A DNA stretch of 5,185 bases from assembly GCA_003554345.1 (NCBI GenBank), contig PWGE01000373.1, forward strand, positions 1 through 5,185, written 5' to 3'. Of this stretch, positions 1,860-5,185 are shown piece after piece. The notes below the pieces were generated by a model. The model did not search any database. It worked only from the letters and a program-made list of their open reading frames with translations, and was not told where the DNA came from. The translations under genes were made by a program, and so were the position numbers. Each line of letters begins with the position of its first letter. Position 1 is the first letter of the stretch. The stretch comes from T1SED10-198M sp003554345 [NCBI: Candidatus Sumerlaeota bacterium] (GTDB lineage Bacteria > Sumerlaeota > T1SED10-198M).

Positions 1860-1875
1860 TGATGTTTGTTTCATA

Positions 1876-1890
1876 TCTCTGAAAATAGAA
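1876..1890 (+). repeat. Tail motif, copy 1 (partial)
   Basis: TCTCTGAAAATAGAA begins 17 bases after the M14 stop codon. It matches the core of the recurring tail motif CTCCTCTGAAAATAGAAC seen at 2143, 2319, 2669 and 4870. No hairpin precedes this copy. Confidence 0.65.
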
Positions 1891-1999
1891 TCCTTGAAAA
1901 GATGTTTTACATCGATGATACGGGAATGAAGTCAAGATAAGTCCGGAAAGAATAAAAAACCAGAAAAATTGGCATCGATGGACATGATATGCAGGAGAT

Positions 2000-2097
2000 C
2001 AGAAAAAAAATCATCTCATCAGATCCAGAAAAAGAGATTTAACAAGGATTGAGAGGATGAAATAGGATGCCAGAAAAAAGATGATGTTATCAGATCC
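2000..2097. repeat. Imperfect 27-bp direct repeat, 71-bp offset
   Basis: Segments 2000-2026 and 2071-2097 both begin CAGAAAAAA and end ATCAGATCC, agreeing at 23 of 27 positions by my alignment. Between them lies an AGGAT cluster (2045-2049, 2054-2058, 2064-2068) spaced 9 and 10 bases apart. This style of degenerate AGGAT repeat is familiar from intergenic DNA of many environmental bacteria. Its function is unknown. Confidence 0.6.
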
Positions 2098-2119
2098 TGG
2101 AAACAGAATAGTATCTTTT

Positions 2120-2137
2120 TTTCGTGCTTTTCGTGGT
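2120..2137. repeat. TTCGTG short-period repeat
   Basis: TTTCGTGCTTTTCGTGGT contains TTCGTG twice at a 9-base period (2121 and 2130), directly before tail copy 2. It looks like a short piece of a widespread intergenic repeat type. I see no regulatory role. Confidence 0.5.
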
Positions 2138-2142
2138 ATATT

Positions 2143-2160
2143 CTCCTCTGAAAATAGAAC
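2143..2160 (+). repeat. Tail motif, copy 2
   Basis: A full CTCCTCTGAAAATAGAAC copy without a preceding CGCCAGC hairpin. It lies 82 bases before the GGGAGCGCCGAT block at 2225. The tail at 4971 lies 81 bases before the same block at 5052, so tail and block belong to one composite unit. Confidence 0.8.
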
Positions 2161-2224
2161 TCTATAAAATACAAGGTACTTTAATAAAAATACTTAAACC
2201 TTACTATTGACTTGCTGCTTCCCA

Positions 2225-2277
2225 GGGAGCGCCGATCTCCGACTTACAGTTCACTCTGGCGGAATCGGCATCTTATT
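2225..2277. repeat. GCCGAT...ATCGGC hairpin module, copy 1
   Basis: This 53-bp module recurs at 5052-5105. Arms 2231-2236 (GCCGAT) and 2264-2269 (ATCGGC) pair perfectly, followed by a bulged C (2237) and a second helix TCCG (2238-2241) with CGGA (2260-2263). The loop holds ACTTACAGT and the start of CACTCTGGCGGA, a string that also occurs in the 2414 and 2607 repeats. In the other copy the 2238-2263 T-A pair is C-G, which supports a conserved fold. Confidence 0.8.
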
Positions 2278-2290
2278 CTCATCATTGGTG

Positions 2291-2338
2291 ACACCAGCCC
2301 TCGCGCTGGCGTGAATAACTCCTCTGAAAATAAAACTC
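2291..2338 (+). repeat. CGCCAGC-type hairpin A plus tail copy 3
   Basis: ACACCAGC (2291-2298) pairs with GCTGGCGT (2305-2312) apart from one A/C mismatch, with a 6-base loop. It is followed by GAATAA and the tail CTCCTCTGAAAATAAAAC (2319-2336). The same order of CATNATTGGTG-type lead, hairpin and tail occurs at 2638-2686 and, truncated, at 2761-2804. A remnant of the right arm and tail sits at 4958-4987. Confidence 0.75.
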
Positions 2339-2342
2339 TTTT

Positions 2343-2364
2343 GAGACGCAAAATATTGCGTCTC
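2343..2364. repeat. GAGACGC palindrome (REP-like hairpin)
   Basis: GAGACGCAA (2343-2351) and TTGCGTCTC (2356-2364) form a perfect 9-bp stem with a 4-base loop, followed by TAC. From general knowledge, GAGACGC/GCGTCTC palindromes of this type recur between genes in many Bacteroidota and cyanobacterial genomes and behave like repetitive extragenic palindromes. No T-tract follows, so I do not call it a terminator. Only one copy is present here. Confidence 0.7.
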
Positions 2365-2413
2365 TACCCTGAGATAATTTGACGTGTCTTTCAAAATGTT
2401 TCTCATGGTCTTC

Positions 2414-2485
2414 CTGAAAGTTCACTCTGGCGGATTTGCGACTCCGCGTGATGCATTCTTTTCTGGGTTCTCTCTTTTTCAAAAA
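2414..2485. repeat. Dispersed block containing a 51-bp exact repeat, copy 1
   Basis: Positions 2435-2485 match 5135-5185 base for base, an offset of exactly 2700. The match begins TTTGCGACTCCGCG and ends TTTTTCAAAAA. The 23 bases at 2414-2436 (starting CTGAAAGTTCACTC, ending GCGGATT) recur exactly at 2607-2629. The block is T-rich on this strand and opens spurious hydrophobic reading frames. Confidence 0.85.
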
Positions 2486-2500
2486 ATCATTCCTCTGCTT

Positions 2501-2574
2501 TTTGCGTTCTTTCTTAACCTTTGCGGTCTTTATTCCCTATTTCTTTTCCGTGGTATCACTTTGCGGGCTTTGCG
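2501..2574. repeat. TTTGCG short-period repeat cluster
   Basis: TTTGCG occurs at 2501, 2520, 2560 and 2569, embedded in CT-rich DNA. The last two copies are 9 bases apart. It resembles the degenerate CTTTGCG tandem repeats common between genes in many environmental bacteria. I see no open gene or regulatory signature. Confidence 0.5.
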
Positions 2575-2606
2575 TGATACTTTTCTTTTTCTGGATTTTT
2601 TTTATT

Positions 2607-2629
2607 CTGAAAGTTCACTCTGGCGGATT
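2607..2629. repeat. 23-bp exact repeat, second copy
   Basis: This is identical to 2414-2436. Its 16-bp core AGTTCACTCTGGCGGA also occurs at 2248-2263 inside the GCCGAT module, giving three copies in 380 bp. Here it leads directly into hairpin B. Confidence 0.85.
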
Positions 2630-2641
2630 CATCATTTATGG

Positions 2642-2686
2642 CGCCAACTCCTGAGTTGGCGTGAGGAACTCCTCTGAAAATAGAAC
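2642..2686 (+). repeat. CGCCAAC-type hairpin B plus tail copy 4
   Basis: CGCCAACTC (2642-2650) and GAGTTGGCG (2653-2661) are perfectly complementary, in practice an 8-bp stem with a 4-base loop. TGAGGAA follows and then the complete tail at 2669-2686. The arm sequence differs from hairpins A and C (CAAC/GTTG instead of CAGC/GCTG) but pairing is kept, which points to selection or an insertion mechanism acting on the fold. Confidence 0.8.
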
Positions 2687-2771
2687 TATTAGGGTCTGTC
2701 TGATTCCGTAGTCCTCTAGCTCCTATTGCTCATATTGGTCCATGTCAGTTTATTTGTTTTCATTATTGGTG

Positions 2772-2804
2772 GCGCCAGCTACTTGCGCTGGTGTGAATAA
2801 CTCC
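2772..2804 (+). repeat. CGCCAGC-type hairpin C with truncated tail
   Basis: GCGCCAGC (2772-2779) pairs with GCTGGTGT (2787-2794) using two G-T pairs, with a 7-base loop. GAATAACTCC follows, and the tail is then lost. The lead CATTATTGGTG (2761-2771) matches the lead of hairpin A. Confidence 0.65.
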
Positions 2805-2884: not shown

Positions 2885-3010
2885 TTGAAAAATAGATGCG
2901 TTAAGGGCTGTTAACGAAGAATATATAAATAGTTCCTCTGGATATTTACTTCATCTGAACCTGAACCAGGTATTTCTCAGCTTTAAAAAGTATGGGGAAA
3001 AGTGATAATT
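2885..3010 (+). other. Putative structured 5' leader of the RDD gene
   Basis: Two small hairpins lie downstream of the predicted start: CGTTAA/TTAACG (2899-2904 with 2911-2916, 6-base loop) and ACCTG/CAGGT (2959-2963 with 2967-2971, 3-base loop), the latter flanked by CTGA and TCAG. I recognise no known riboswitch consensus, and there is no leader peptide longer than a few codons. GGGGA at 2994-2998 is the only Shine-Dalgarno-like sequence and sits rather far (12 bases) from the ATG. Confidence 0.3.
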
Positions 3011-3754
3011 ATGACCGATACTCAGAAAGAATGGTACTATATCATAGATGATGAAGAAAAGGGACCGGTCACTGAAAGCGGGTTAATGGAAAAGTTTGAA
3101 AAGGGGGAATTAAACCGGGGTGTTCCTATCTTTTGCGAATCTATGAAAAGATTTGCCCCGGCCTCAAAAGTCGAACCGTTTAAAAGTTACTTCCTGAGAA
3201 AATCCTCTCCTTCTCAATTATCTGATAGCCCTTATACCACAATAATGGGCTCTTCTTCAGGGGAGAGAAGAGGGGCATTCATTCATCGTCCCTGGCTCCG
3301 GTGGTGGGCAAGGATATTTGATTATCTTTTATTTGGTTTTGTCAGCGCGCAGGTTGTTTCATTCATGGCACCCCAGTTCTTAGAATTAGAAGAGATTGTG
3401 CTGGCTATGATGGTTGTTTTTGTGTGGGTATTTATGGAAGCCCTCTTGCTTTCTACGTGGGGCACCACCCCGGGTAAATGGCTTTTGAAAATTACCCTCC
3501 GCGATTCCAGTAATAATATACTCTCATTTAATGAGGCTCTGAAACGCAGTTTTTATGTATGGTCTGCAGGAATGGGTATTGGTTATCCCATACTTTCTTT
3601 TGTCACGCTTCTATTTGGATATCGAACCCTCCGTACAGAAGGTATGACTCGCTGGGATGAGGCTGGTGGATTAGTAGTGACCCATCAAAAGGTGGGCATA
3701 TTTCGTGCCGTGCTTACTATTGGCCTCTTCATCGCCTTAATATTACACCTGTAA
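3011..3754 (+). CDS. GYF_2 domain - RDD family membrane protein
   Basis: Predicted 247-residue inner-membrane protein. Residues about 7-57 are a GYF_2 (DUF4339) domain: EWYY, KGP at 17-19, then an amphipathic stretch and a Phe-Ala-Pro turn. This fold is thought to bind short proline-rich or peptide partners on the cytosolic side. A Ser-rich linker (65-85) leads to an RDD domain (about 94-226) with its hallmark RWWARIFD (Arg97, Arg101, Asp104), GTTPGKWLLKI (151-161) and RWDEAGGLVV (214-223). Hydrophobic segments near 103-119, 128-148, 186-203 and 230-247 are probable membrane helices. RDD proteins are mostly uncharacterised; a few are linked to ion or Na+/H+ transport, so transport is only a guess. 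ATG 3011 is chosen over GTG 3002 because GTG sits only three bases after GGGGA. The gene stands alone behind its own strong promoter. Confidence 0.9.
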   Translation: MTDTQKEWYYIIDDEEKGPVTESGLMEKFEKGELNRGVPIFCESMKRFAPASKVEPFKSYFLRKSSPSQLSDSPYTTIMGSSSGERRGAFIHRPWLRWWARIFDYLLFGFVSAQVVSFMAPQFLELEEIVLAMMVVFVWVFMEALLLSTWGTTPGKWLLKITLRDSSNNILSFNEALKRSFYVWSAGMGIGYPILSFVTLLFGYRTLRTEGMTRWDEAGGLVVTHQKVGIFRAVLTIGLFIALILHL

Positions 3755-3936: not shown

Positions 3937-4830
3937 TTAATGTTGGAAAAGGCGTAAGTGAGGATAACTCATTCCACCCTCTATTATCCAGGTATTGTTA
4001 AAATCCCAGTTTTTAAAAGACTCCTGTTGACTCATTTCTTCAGGTGAAAGAGCTTCGCCTTTTCCTCTGTCAGGTTGGCGGGAAACGTCTCTATTGTAAT
4101 AGCAATTTTCGATTTCACCCACACAGACACCGACAATACCGCCGCTATAATTTCCGGTAACTTCTCCTGCGGCGTAACAATTTTTCAGATGCGCTCTTCG
4201 GTTACGGCCTACCAGACCTCCTGTAATTCTGTCGGCTTGCTGAATGTCAACACGGGCAAAACTGTTCTCAATAAGGGCGTATGGAGGGTCTTCCGATGCA
4301 GGGTCATCACTTACGTAACCAGCCAGTCCTCCGACAATCCGGTCTCCTTCGATGGAACCGGTGGCATAGCTGGTAGATATCTGGCTGCCGGGGTCCATGA
4401 AAGCCACCAGTGATGCAGTTGCCAGTTTACCTGTAACATTTACGTCTTCCAGTCCTGTTCCTGTGATCTTTCCTTCTTCCCCGAGATAGGCAAAAAGAGC
4501 TACTGCCCTGTACCGGGGTTTATGGATGGTGAGATTTCGAATAATGTATCCGTCACCGTTATATGTCCCCTGAAAAGCCTGGTTTGCATGGTGGTGTAAT
4601 TCCTGCCAGGATCCAATGGGTTCCCATTCCTTTTCCGCGAGGTCAATATCAGATATTTGCCTGAAATGGCTGTCCAGATGATTCCTCACATTATCCAGAT
4701 GTTCGGCTGTTTCTATGAGATAGGGATCTTCTGAGGTGCCGCTTCCTCCTGCAAATTCTGCACCATTTAAAAAGAGAAAGAGAAAGAATATAGCAGAAAA
4801 TGTGATAATCCTGACAATTTTTAATTTCAT
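3937..4830 (-). CDS. Secreted GLUG-repeat protein
   Basis: Predicted exported protein of 297 residues. Residues 1-24 or 1-27 form a signal peptide (Lys/Arg start, very hydrophobic ITFSAIFFLFLFL, then NGAEFA). The mature part begins FAGGSGTSEDPYLI and continues with HLDNVRNHL and DIDL, a common start of extracellular beta-helix proteins. FQGTYNGDGYIIRNLTI (86-102) is the usual next element. GLUG-type turns follow: a degenerate one at about 139-160, then GGLAGY (167-172), GGLVGRN (204-210) with LKNCYAAGEV, and GGIVGV (230-235) with IENCYYN. The C-terminus (SPEEM, WDF, YPHL) is typical of the family. No cell-wall anchor, sorting domain or membrane segment is seen after the signal, so it is likely periplasmic or released. 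The family often has adhesin- or surface-like roles; no substrate can be assigned. The gene is monocistronic in this window and convergent with the RDD gene. Confidence 0.88.
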   Translation of the reverse strand: MKLKIVRIITFSAIFFLFLFLNGAEFAGGSGTSEDPYLIETAEHLDNVRNHLDSHFRQISDIDLAEKEWEPIGSWQELHHHANQAFQGTYNGDGYIIRNLTIHKPRYRAVALFAYLGEEGKITGTGLEDVNVTGKLATASLVAFMDPGSQISTSYATGSIEGDRIVGGLAGYVSDDPASEDPPYALIENSFARVDIQQADRITGGLVGRNRRAHLKNCYAAGEVTGNYSGGIVGVCVGEIENCYYNRDVSRQPDRGKGEALSPEEMSQQESFKNWDFNNTWIIEGGMSYPHLRLFQH

Positions 4831-4869: not shown

Positions 4870-4887
4870 CTCCTCTGAAAATAGAAA
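4870..4887 (+). repeat. Tail motif, copy 5
   Basis: CTCCTCTGAAAATAGAAA lies 40 bases upstream of the GLUG start codon. On the gene's strand it reads TTTCAGAGGAG, which contains a Shine-Dalgarno-like AGAGGAG, though too far from the ATG to serve it. Confidence 0.75.
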
Positions 4888-4957: not shown

Positions 4958-4987
4958 CTGGCATAAATAACTCCTCTGAATCTAAAC
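4958..4987 (+). repeat. Remnant hairpin arm plus tail copy 6
   Basis: CCTGGCATAAATAACTCCTC resembles the right arm, spacer and tail start of hairpin A (GCTGGCGTGAATAACTCCTC). The left arm is missing and the tail has drifted (GAATCTAAAC). It is best read as a decayed copy. Confidence 0.55.
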
Positions 4988-5051
4988 TTTTCAAAATAAA
5001 ATATACATTGGTAAAAAACCTTGTACTTCACTATTGTATTGCCGCTTTCCT

Positions 5052-5105
5052 GGGAGCGCCGATCCCCGACTTACAGTCCGCCTATGGCGGGATCGGCATC
5101 TTATT
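5052..5105. repeat. GCCGAT...ATCGGC hairpin module, copy 2
   Basis: Arms GCCGAT (5058-5063) and ATCGGC (5092-5097) pair, with bulged C5064 and an inner CCCG (5065-5068)/CGGG (5088-5091) helix, the same architecture as copy 1. An alternative perfect CCGCC/GGCGG hairpin (5078-5082 with 5086-5090) is possible in this copy only. It lies 81 bases after tail copy 6. Confidence 0.8.
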
Positions 5106-5134
5106 ATGAAAGGTCACTCTGTCAGATTTACCTC

Positions 5135-5185
5135 TTTGCGACTCCGCGTGATGCATTCTTTTCTGGGTTCTCTCTTTTTCAAAAA
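5135..5185. repeat. 51-bp exact repeat, copy 2 (cut by window end)
   Basis: Identical to 2435-2485. The match is still perfect at the last base of the window, so its true length is unknown. Here it follows the GCCGAT module after a short spacer, whereas in the first copy about 137 extra bases intervene. Confidence 0.85.

What the first reader, a model, noticed from the sequence alone, without database searches (positions are those of the whole stretch)
2143..2804. Modular family of hairpin-plus-tail intergenic repeats
Seen: an 18-bp tail (CTCCTCTGAAAATAGAAC) occurs in full or part six times (1876, 2143, 2319, 2669, 4870, 4971). In three of these (2319, 2669 and the 4971 remnant), and before the truncated tail at 2795, it follows a CGCCA(G/A)C-type hairpin or its arm. 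The three intact hairpins differ in arms but keep pairing. Tail-to-GCCGAT-module distance is 82 and 81 in the two composite copies. Inference: a non-autonomous mobile repeat (REP/BIME or MITE-like) or a family of small structured RNAs, spread by something not in this window.
Basis: partly seen in the sequence, partly recalled or inferred. Interest (0 to 1): 0.6.

Follow-up and report, generated by a model that had tools for sequence, protein, structure and literature searches.

The report
Mobile repeats landing at Shine-Dalgarno sites
The repeats in this stretch belong to a large family of small, gene-free mobile DNA units shared between distant bacterial groups; in one of those groups they often sit exactly behind the ribosome-binding signal of genes and bring a replacement signal with them, so the gene should stay readable.

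Summary
The 18-nt 'tail' is one end of a cassette-like unit: 142 copies within 2 mismatches in this genome, reversed control 0. Units sit head to tail, share both ends and carry different cargo. The same 18-mer occurs 172 times in an Anaerolineae genome with other cargo and, within 1 mismatch, in 13 of 297 relatives of it; of 39 genomes of the window's own phylum one has a chance-like match. On the minus strand a unit reads GGAG|TT..hairpin..TGAAAAT-cargo-TATTTTCAGAGGAG|. In Chloroflexota it lies between a gene's Shine-Dalgarno (SD) and start codon: 41 of 84 outward ends in the Anaerolineae genome against 26 of 290 other noncoding GGAGs; 15 of 26 elsewhere. One syntenic empty site reads stop-SD-spacer-ATG. 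Best reading: non-autonomous elements that insert 3' of GGAG, rebuild the SD and so make a new target. The window's genome lacks SD placement (6 of 69; control 99 of 607). No mobilising enzyme was identified; a RAYT-type REP is unlikely but not excluded.

The parts
1874..2142 (-). unit 1: degenerate 3' end (1874-1891, TATCTCTGAAAATAGAAT on +) with cargo class C (GATGTTTTACATCGATGATACGGG...), ending at the alternative 5' end TTTCGTGCTTTTCGTGGTATATT
   Evidence: the same module recurs in other contigs
2143..2318 (-). unit 2: 3' end 2143-2160 (RC GTTCTATTTTCAGAGGAG), cargo class A with GCCGAT..ATCGGC (2231-2269), 5' hairpin 2292-2311
   Evidence: the 199-nt stretch from here has 71 blastn matches in the genome, itself included
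2319..2668 (-). unit 3: 3' end 2319-2336, cargo class B with palindrome GAGACGCAAAATATTGCGTCTC (2343-2364), 5' hairpin 2642-2661
   Evidence: (13 units of the largest class-B cluster in the fetched contigs)
2669..2800 (-). unit 4: 3' end 2669-2686, cargo class D (TATTAGGGTCTGTCTGATTCCG), 5' hairpin 2773-2793
2801..2804 (-). flank of array 1 on its 5' side: CTCC (RC GGAG; context GACTGGGGAG), the supposed target
   Evidence: compare 24 terminal ends of this genome
4870..4970 (-). unit 5: 3' end 4870-4887 and cargo class E (TCAGGAGTCAGAATGGGAAAGAAC...); 39 nt upstream of the start of the GLUG-motif gene (3937-4830, minus strand)
4971..5185 (-). unit 6, degenerate 3' end (4971-4988, 5 mismatches) and a class A cargo; runs to the contig end
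2279..2336 (.). junction of units 2 and 3: TCATCATTGGTG, variable-arm hairpin, GTGAATAA, then CTCCTCTGAAAATA
   Evidence: alignment A1 and pair counts

Best explanation
The window holds two arrays of a non-autonomous mobile element. Functionally it reads on the minus strand: GGAG | TT(A/G)TYCAYG - hairpin - CACCA - TGAAAATA - cargo (about 20-250 nt, no gene seen) - TATTTTCAGAGGAG |. A unit inserts directly 3' of a GGAG. Its own 3' end GAGGAG is a copy of that target, so the GGAG in front of the downstream sequence is restored and the next unit can insert behind it; repeated insertion gives head-to-tail arrays of one orientation. In Chloroflexota the GGAG is often the gene's Shine-Dalgarno (SD), so the unit slides between SD and start codon and its own GAGGAG should take over as SD. 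Shown: copy number, shared ends, cargo exchange, SD placement in Chloroflexota, SD at or near the joint in most relatives, one syntenic empty site. Inferred: that the movement is single-stranded, of the IS200/IS605 kind, by a trans-acting HUH enzyme not yet identified; that the unit's GAGGAG is the SD used; and that the arrays of the window's genome grew by the same rule, with older unit ends as targets.
For: Copies and chance: (142 and 172; reversed control 0). Shared ends with different cargo. SD placement: G041 41 of 84 outward-facing ends against 26 of 290 other noncoding GGAG of the same loci (Fisher p 1.2e-14); further Chloroflexota 15 of 26 (p 1.1e-8, measured against the same G041 control); spacing peaks at 6 nt. 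The most uniform family (47 units of exactly 86 nt, mean identity 97.0%) abuts start codons in 33 of 59 against 21 of 106 for other units. Joint: of 11 joined flank pairs, 6 read GGAG/GGGG-spacer-start, such as CGAAGGAG|AGACACGATG and CAGAGGAG|CACAACATG. In 15 of 18 relatives' loci where the joint could be placed, a GGAG ends at it or within 6 nt. Empty site: between LEREFGRK* and MEHRRP..VIGPLILIT, G341 has only TAG-TCAAAGGAGACAAC-ATG, while G278 has the unit. In one occupied locus (L239) the native SD reads AAAAAAG where a relative has AAAAGGAG. 5' flanks in the window's genome: 18 of 24 within one mismatch of CTCC, 7 exact. Hairpin pairing kept through changes. ssDNA fold of a G278 unit: a hairpin after GGAG|TTGTCCA and a long stem ending TATTTTCA|GAGGAG, with GGA of the flank paired to TCC at the hairpin foot (z-score only -1.05).
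Against: In the window's genome outward-facing ends are not at start codons (6 of 69, below the 99 of 607 of other noncoding GGAGs), so SD targeting is not general. No transposase between these ends was found: of 27 Y1 and 5 TnpB loci of element-bearing Chloroflexota none has both ends, and one (L304, G045) has a unit end about 0.9 kb away on one side. G000 has one truncated Y1 with a unit on its upstream side and no TnpB. A GGAG on both sides cannot be told from a 4-bp target duplication. Of 11 joined flank pairs, 2 have a start codon but a degraded SD, one has its own GGAGG and start 12 nt on, and 2 have neither. Three of 18 relatives (L253, L255, L275) have no GGAG at the joint. Only one clean syntenic empty site was found, and the occupied copy there also has a second, older-looking insert; at least six relatives (L251, L256, L257, L274, L277, L278) carry other palindromes or tandem repeats in front of their SD (by eye). 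A test that units farther from the gene are more diverged failed (p 0.14 and 0.87).
Confidence: 0.7

Rival explanations
1. RAYT-mobilised REP/BIME or REPIN elements.
For: Extragenic, many copies, palindrome at the unit's end, tetranucleotide in front. The single Y1_Tnp remnant of G000 lies 116 nt behind a unit (3076-3292 of L102; Y1 match from 3408), and its other side is cut off by the contig end. Y1 genes exist in 10 of 11 element-bearing Chloroflexota. Head-to-tail REP pairs are also described (PMC3733652, passages). My odds went from 0.12 to 0.15 after I re-measured the Y1 neighbourhood.
Against: The G000 Y1 lacks its N-terminal part (profile positions 51-121 of 121 matched), and a GTAGGGGC..GCCCC palindrome of another kind lies between it and the unit. 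The tetranucleotide is GGAG, 6-8 nt from the hairpin, not GT[AG]G at its foot. None of 27 Y1 loci has both ends.
Confidence: 0.15
2. Not mobile: a conserved cis-regulatory 5' leader (promoter/SD or structured RNA) that spreads only by recombination between copies.
For: SD placement in Chloroflexota; hairpin covariation; the end sequence is kept across phyla.
Against: Empty syntenic site; copy number differs from 0 to 144 within one mismatch among 298 related genomes; cargo varies freely; no SD placement in G000; head-to-tail arrays.
Confidence: 0.1
3. Integron-like cassettes exchanged by a tyrosine recombinase at a folded attC-like junction (outer arms TATTTTCA/TGAAAATA, inner hairpin).
For: Junction palindrome with variable inner arms; cassette exchange; G041 has an integron integrase of 363 bits, cut-off 265.
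Against: No match in G000 at E <= 0.001 and none over the cut-off in G278. The 20 kb fetched around the G041 integrase hold only a few scattered unit ends. No RYYYAAC/GTTRRRY core by eye; no gene in the units; dispersed over the genome.
Confidence: 0.06
4. MITE of a cut-and-paste IS with TIR TGAAAATAGRAC/GTYCTATTTTCA, inserted into an older REP-like hairpin repeat.
For: In some copies the inverted arms extend to about 15 nt around the cargo (L199).
Against: The flanks of that inverted repeat are near-constant (CTCCTC on one side, TGGTG-hairpin on the other) and move with it, so they are not a variable target site. I did not search for an IS with such TIRs.
Confidence: 0.1

Closest known systems
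IS200/IS605-type single-strand elements and their non-autonomous derivatives
   Same: Insertion 3' of a short target that stays in place and flanks the left end; similar tetranucleotide at the right end; hairpins near the ends; no terminal inverted repeats (plan of the family: PMC6006769, passages, and general knowledge).
   Different: Target GGAG = Shine-Dalgarno; no tnpA/tnpB between these ends found; exchangeable cargo; dense head-to-tail arrays.
REP / REPIN (RAYT-associated; PMC6006769, PMC3116915, PMC3733652)
   Same: Short extragenic palindromic repeats in >100 copies, arms vary while pairing holds, tandem clusters.
   Different: GGAG instead of GT[AG]G, hairpin 6-8 nt away, no RAYT between the ends, units of 86 to some 400 nt with cargo.
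BOX elements of pneumococcus (PMC3049150)
   Same: Modular, variable size, intergenic.
   Different: BOX has boxA/boxC ends with repeated boxB; no SD targeting in the passages I read; here the ends are shared across phyla with different cargo.
Integron gene cassettes / attC
   Same: Exchangeable units between folded palindromic junctions.
   Different: No attC core sequences seen, no genes, not an array beside an integrase.

Membership tests
REP/REPIN (RAYT-associated) | GT[AG]G tetranucleotide 0-2 nt 5' of the hairpin foot (PMC6006769, passages) | tested here: not met
   GGAG, 6-8 nt from the hairpin
REP/REPIN (RAYT-associated) | RAYT/Y1 gene flanked by the same palindrome | tested here: inconclusive
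   one truncated Y1 in G000 with a unit 116 nt upstream, another palindrome in between and the other side lost at the contig end; none of 27 Y1 loci of element-bearing genomes has both ends
REP/REPIN (RAYT-associated) | inverted doublets (REPIN, BIME) | tested here: not met
   units follow each other in one orientation; head-to-tail REP pairs do exist (PMC3733652), so this weighs little
MITE | terminal inverted repeats | tested here: not met
   unit termini TTATTCACG.. / TTGTCCATG.. and ..CAGAGGAG are not inverted repeats
MITE | target-site duplication | tested here: inconclusive
   GGAG on both sides; the unit's own copy is constant while the flank varies
IS200/IS605-type element | insertion 3' of a fixed short target that stays in place | tested here: met
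   (Chloroflexota, with the exceptions told above); weaker in G000
IS200/IS605-type element | subterminal hairpins near both ends | tested here: inconclusive
   5' hairpin clear and covarying in G000; 3' stem predicted in one G278 unit, z-score -1.05
IS200/IS605-type element | tnpA with or without tnpB between matching ends | tested here: not met
IS200/IS605-type element | guide tetranucleotide pairing with the target | tested here: inconclusive
   one G278 locus folds with GGA of the flank paired to TCC at the hairpin foot; other families only by eye
integron cassette | attC core RYYYAAC/GTTRRRY and array beside intI | tested here: not met
   sequence by eye; G041 intI region; no intI match in G000
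Rfam RNA family | score over gathering cut-off | tested here: not met
   window; four loci, E<=0.1: one match of 27.8 bits against 81, outside the unit

The most novel reading that the evidence does not exclude
A so far undescribed, cross-phylum class of non-autonomous elements that lands in the Shine-Dalgarno sequence and carries a replacement SD at its 3' end. It would be harmless to the host, would stack in 5' leaders as head-to-tail arrays, would replace the native SD (which then decays), and would swap its cargo freely while its two ends pass between phyla.
Probability: 0.55. Interest if true: 0.85.

Novelty: new variant of a known kind. Interest (0 to 1): 0.7.

Why it matters
If true, a mobile element has made the translation start signal its docking site and repairs that signal as it lands. 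That would explain why it can be so abundant next to genes, and it would give a new source of 5' leader evolution: genes whose ribosome-binding site is of transposon origin. The target rule (insertion 3' of GGAG) is directly testable, and the exact 18-nt end shared by two phyla points to one unidentified enzyme that can be looked for.

Tried and rejected
RAYT origin: Y1_Tnp searched in G000 and G041 and in 11 further genomes bearing the motif. The scan of the Y1 and TnpB loci for unit ends allowed 2 mismatches and found no locus with both ends. Of its 5 loci with a left-end match, 4 (L285, L289, L293, L207) look unrelated by eye and one (L304) is a real-looking single unit end. TnpB: none in G000 or G041 at E <= 0.001, five in G278.

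Integron: an integrase exists in G041 but no array of this kind beside it.

Viral carriers: three exact-pattern scans of viral contigs (18 to 21 nt) found nothing. The single hit in G039 of the own phylum shows no hairpin end and looks like coding sequence (by eye), so I count it as chance. Of 16 contigs, six belong to the Anaerolineae genome and one (L037) carries window-type units; the other nine showed no unit anatomy by eye.

Age order within arrays: tested on the 14-nt end, no gradient. Empty sites by comparing flanks within a genome were not clean, because the backgrounds are themselves repeats.

Sampling and dropped rows. The 80 G000 contigs were taken mostly because they carry copies (one search's list shows only the first 100 of 142 places). 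The 75 G041 loci (238,285 bases) come mostly from the exact matches listed first. In one search, 82 of 193 left ends in G000 and 59 of 149 in G041 could be paired with a right end; the rest were not measured. A looser first count of start-codon contacts (G041 52 of 104, G000 11 of 98, random control 18% in G000 and 24% in G041) was replaced. In one search I kept 24 of 35 terminal right ends (at most 4 mismatches and at least 30 nt of flank). In 'facing unique DNA' rests on pattern rules, so some diverged internal junctions count as outward.

Literature: searches (held PMC library only) listed no description of SD-targeting repeats that I could recognise from titles and abstract starts. I read passages of PMC3733652, PMC6006769, PMC3049150, PMC3116915 and PMC2775950, none in full.

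Full report
What is in the window. The contig is one of 454 of a 2.55-Mb metagenome-assembled genome (G000, 87.7% complete). Its genes are an M14 peptidase (459-1859, +), an RDD/GYF_2 protein (3002-3754, +) and a GLUG-motif protein (3937-4830, -). Between and beside them lie two arrays, 1874-2800 and 4870 to the contig end.

It is a genome-wide family of cassette-like units. The 18-mer occurs 142 times with at most 2 mismatches in G000; the reversed control has none. I took 80 contigs (0.52 Mb), mostly because they carry copies. In them the 18-mer is one constant end, CTCCTCTGAAAATA(G/A)A(A/C)C. It is followed by one of several cargo classes and then by a second constant end, TTTTCATNATTGGTGGCGC-hairpin-GCGTGAATAA, or by an alternative end TTTCGTGCTTTTCGTGGTTTATT. 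The next unit starts at once with CTCC. Of 193 left ends, 82 could be paired with a right end; these units have a median of 222 nt, and by a loose cut their cargo falls into 12 clusters of two or more units (some related) and 4 single ones. The hairpin is real: on 33 sequences 88.6% of cells pair, 58 cells have both sides changed against 19.3 (sd 4.5) in shuffles, and sliding the partner leaves at most 44.2% paired. The 33 are 31 of the 45 distinct junctions plus two from the window; candidates had been screened for a stem or closeness to the consensus, and the arms fall into only a few types, so the number of independent changes is small.

Spread. In 40 genomes of the same phylum (own one included) the 17-mer TAACTCCTCTGAAAATA has 85 matches in G000, one chance-like match in G039 and none in 38 others; the 199-nt composite matches none of 40 relatives, 39 of the phylum. 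An exact scan of the species-genome contigs for a 20-mer gave 16 stretches, six of them from one Anaerolineae genome, WFQU01. That genome (G041) holds 172 copies of the 18-mer, control 0. There the cargo and the hairpin differ, yet the 18-mer, TTTTCAT, TGGTG and ATGATAA|CTCC are the same. G041 did not appear among the 40 genomes of G000's phylum, so the two are of different phyla; the tool names no taxon for G000. Among 298 genomes around G041, 14 (itself included) have the motif with at most one mismatch; the reversed pattern has one hit in each of 4 genomes. I read one locus from each of the 13 others (two from G319). In 8 of these 14 loci both ends of a unit can be recognised by eye.

The functional strand is the other one. 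In G041 the reverse complement of the 'tail' reads TATTTTCAGAGGAG, often followed by a short spacer and a start codon. Counting only ends that face unique DNA, 41 of 84 have a start codon of a long frame 3-15 nt away, with a peak at 6 nt; of 290 other noncoding GGAG sites in the same loci, 26 do (Fisher p 1.2e-14). In the further genomes it is 15 of 26 (p 1.1e-8 against the G041 control, as no control was drawn from those genomes). By eye some of the 11 misses lie before short frames (for example L241, 50 codons). So in Chloroflexota the unit often ends exactly where a Shine-Dalgarno belongs.

Insertion site. For ten single or double units of G278 and one of G324 I joined the flanks. Six read GGAG or GGGG, spacer, start codon: L235, L237, L238, L241, L243, L244 (such as CGAAGGAG|AGACACGATG, CAGAGGAG|CACAACATG, AAAGGGAG|GGTTATG). 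Two have the start codon but a degraded SD (L239, L249). L242 has its own GGAGG and a start 12 nt on; L236 and L240 have neither. I searched eight of them in 40 relatives of G278 (loci of the best matches only). In 18 relatives' loci the joint could be placed, and in 15 a GGAG ends at it or within 6 nt; L253, L255 and L275 have none. The clearest case has the same two genes in G278, G196 and G341..LEREFGRK* and MEH(R/K)..IGP.. (I read the first as mutL by eye). G341 has only TAG-TCAAAGGAGACAAC-ATG between them. G278 has a palindrome ending AAGGGAG and then the unit. G196, and G298 with a similar arrangement, have other repeats at the same place, each followed by GGAG. In L239 the native SD behind the unit reads AAAAAAG where a relative (L277) has AAAAGGAG, which is what one expects if the unit's GAGGAG has taken over; this is one case. 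At least six of the relatives that lack the unit carry other palindromes or tandem repeats in front of their SD (by eye), so the place attracts several repeat families.

How it most likely works. The anatomy GGAG | TTGTCCA-hairpin-CACCA..-stem with cargo-GAGGAG | (single-strand fold; z-score only -1.05) is that of a small element with a hairpin near each end, a target tetranucleotide kept on its 5' side and a similar one as its own 3' end. In that fold GGA of the flank pairs with TCC at the hairpin foot, where IS200/IS605 elements keep their guide (PMC6006769, passages). By established knowledge this is the plan of IS200/IS605 transposition; I infer a single-strand insertion by an enzyme acting in trans. 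It also explains the arrays: each unit's own GAGGAG is a fresh target. In line with this, the most uniform family of G041 (47 units of 86 nt, 97.0% identity) abuts start codons more often (33 of 59) than other units (21 of 106). A direct test for increasing age away from the gene was negative.

What does not fit. In G000 outward ends are not at start codons (6 of 69; control 99 of 607), and neighbours on that side more often show their 3' end (32 against 17, rough gene calls). The 5' flank still resembles GGAGT (18 of 24 within one mismatch of CTCC, 7 exact) and often continues to resemble an old unit end. I read this as old arrays growing on old unit ends, but another target rule in G000 is possible. 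No mobilising gene was identified. The single Y1 gene of G000 is truncated; a unit ends 116 nt upstream of its match, a GTAGGGGC palindrome lies between, and the contig ends just after it. Y1 and TnpB genes elsewhere do not lie between the ends, and the integron integrase of G041 is not beside an array of this kind.

Comparison. REP elements carry GT[AG]G at the hairpin foot (PMC6006769, passages) and are tied to RAYT genes, often as inverted doublets (PMC3116915, passages), though head-to-tail pairs are known too and GTAG repeats occur in Chloroflexi (PMC3733652, passages). The units here have GGAG, 6-8 nt from the hairpin. BOX elements (PMC3049150, passages) share the modular build. Searches of the held literature listed no report of repeats that insert at Shine-Dalgarno sequences that I could recognise. 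I therefore file it as a new variant of small non-autonomous mobile repeats, with an unusual target and a way to leave the host gene readable.

Noticed in passing
window 2435-2485 and 5135-5185: A 51-nt stretch is 100% identical at both places and the contig ends in the second copy; several contigs of this genome end within a few hundred bases of such repeats, so the repeats probably broke the assembly.
   Followed up: partly
L037 (PWHR01000077.1) about 49-490: A contig filed in a Thermoplasmata archaeon MAG carries window-type units (about 79-100% identity to stretches of G000 contigs) and, by eye, a GLUG-type protein frame; it looks like a misbinned contig of a relative of the window's organism.
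   Followed up: partly
L102 3420-3704 (G000 C235): Truncated Y1_Tnp/RAYT-like gene without its N-terminal half; a unit of the family lies 116 nt upstream of the match and a GTAGGGGCGGACC..GGTCCGCCC palindrome lies between; the contig ends just after the gene.
   Followed up: partly
L230 879-2129 (G041 C156): Integron-type integrase (363 bits, cut-off 265) in an Anaerolineae genome; no cassette array recognised in the kilobases around it.
   Followed up: partly
L237, L251, L261, L278 (gene ending LEREFGRK and the following gene): The same SD between two genes has received different repeat inserts in three genomes (G278, G196, G298) and none in a fourth (G341): a landing hot spot for several repeat families.
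   Followed up: partly
cargo in G278, G041, G319, upstream DNA in G315 (L277), and window cargo C/E: Cargo is often made of degenerate roughly 10-nt repeats, some folded back on themselves (GCGGATTAAC, GACCGCCGACC, TTTCGTG..). Similar repeats occur in front of SDs without the conserved ends.
   Followed up: no
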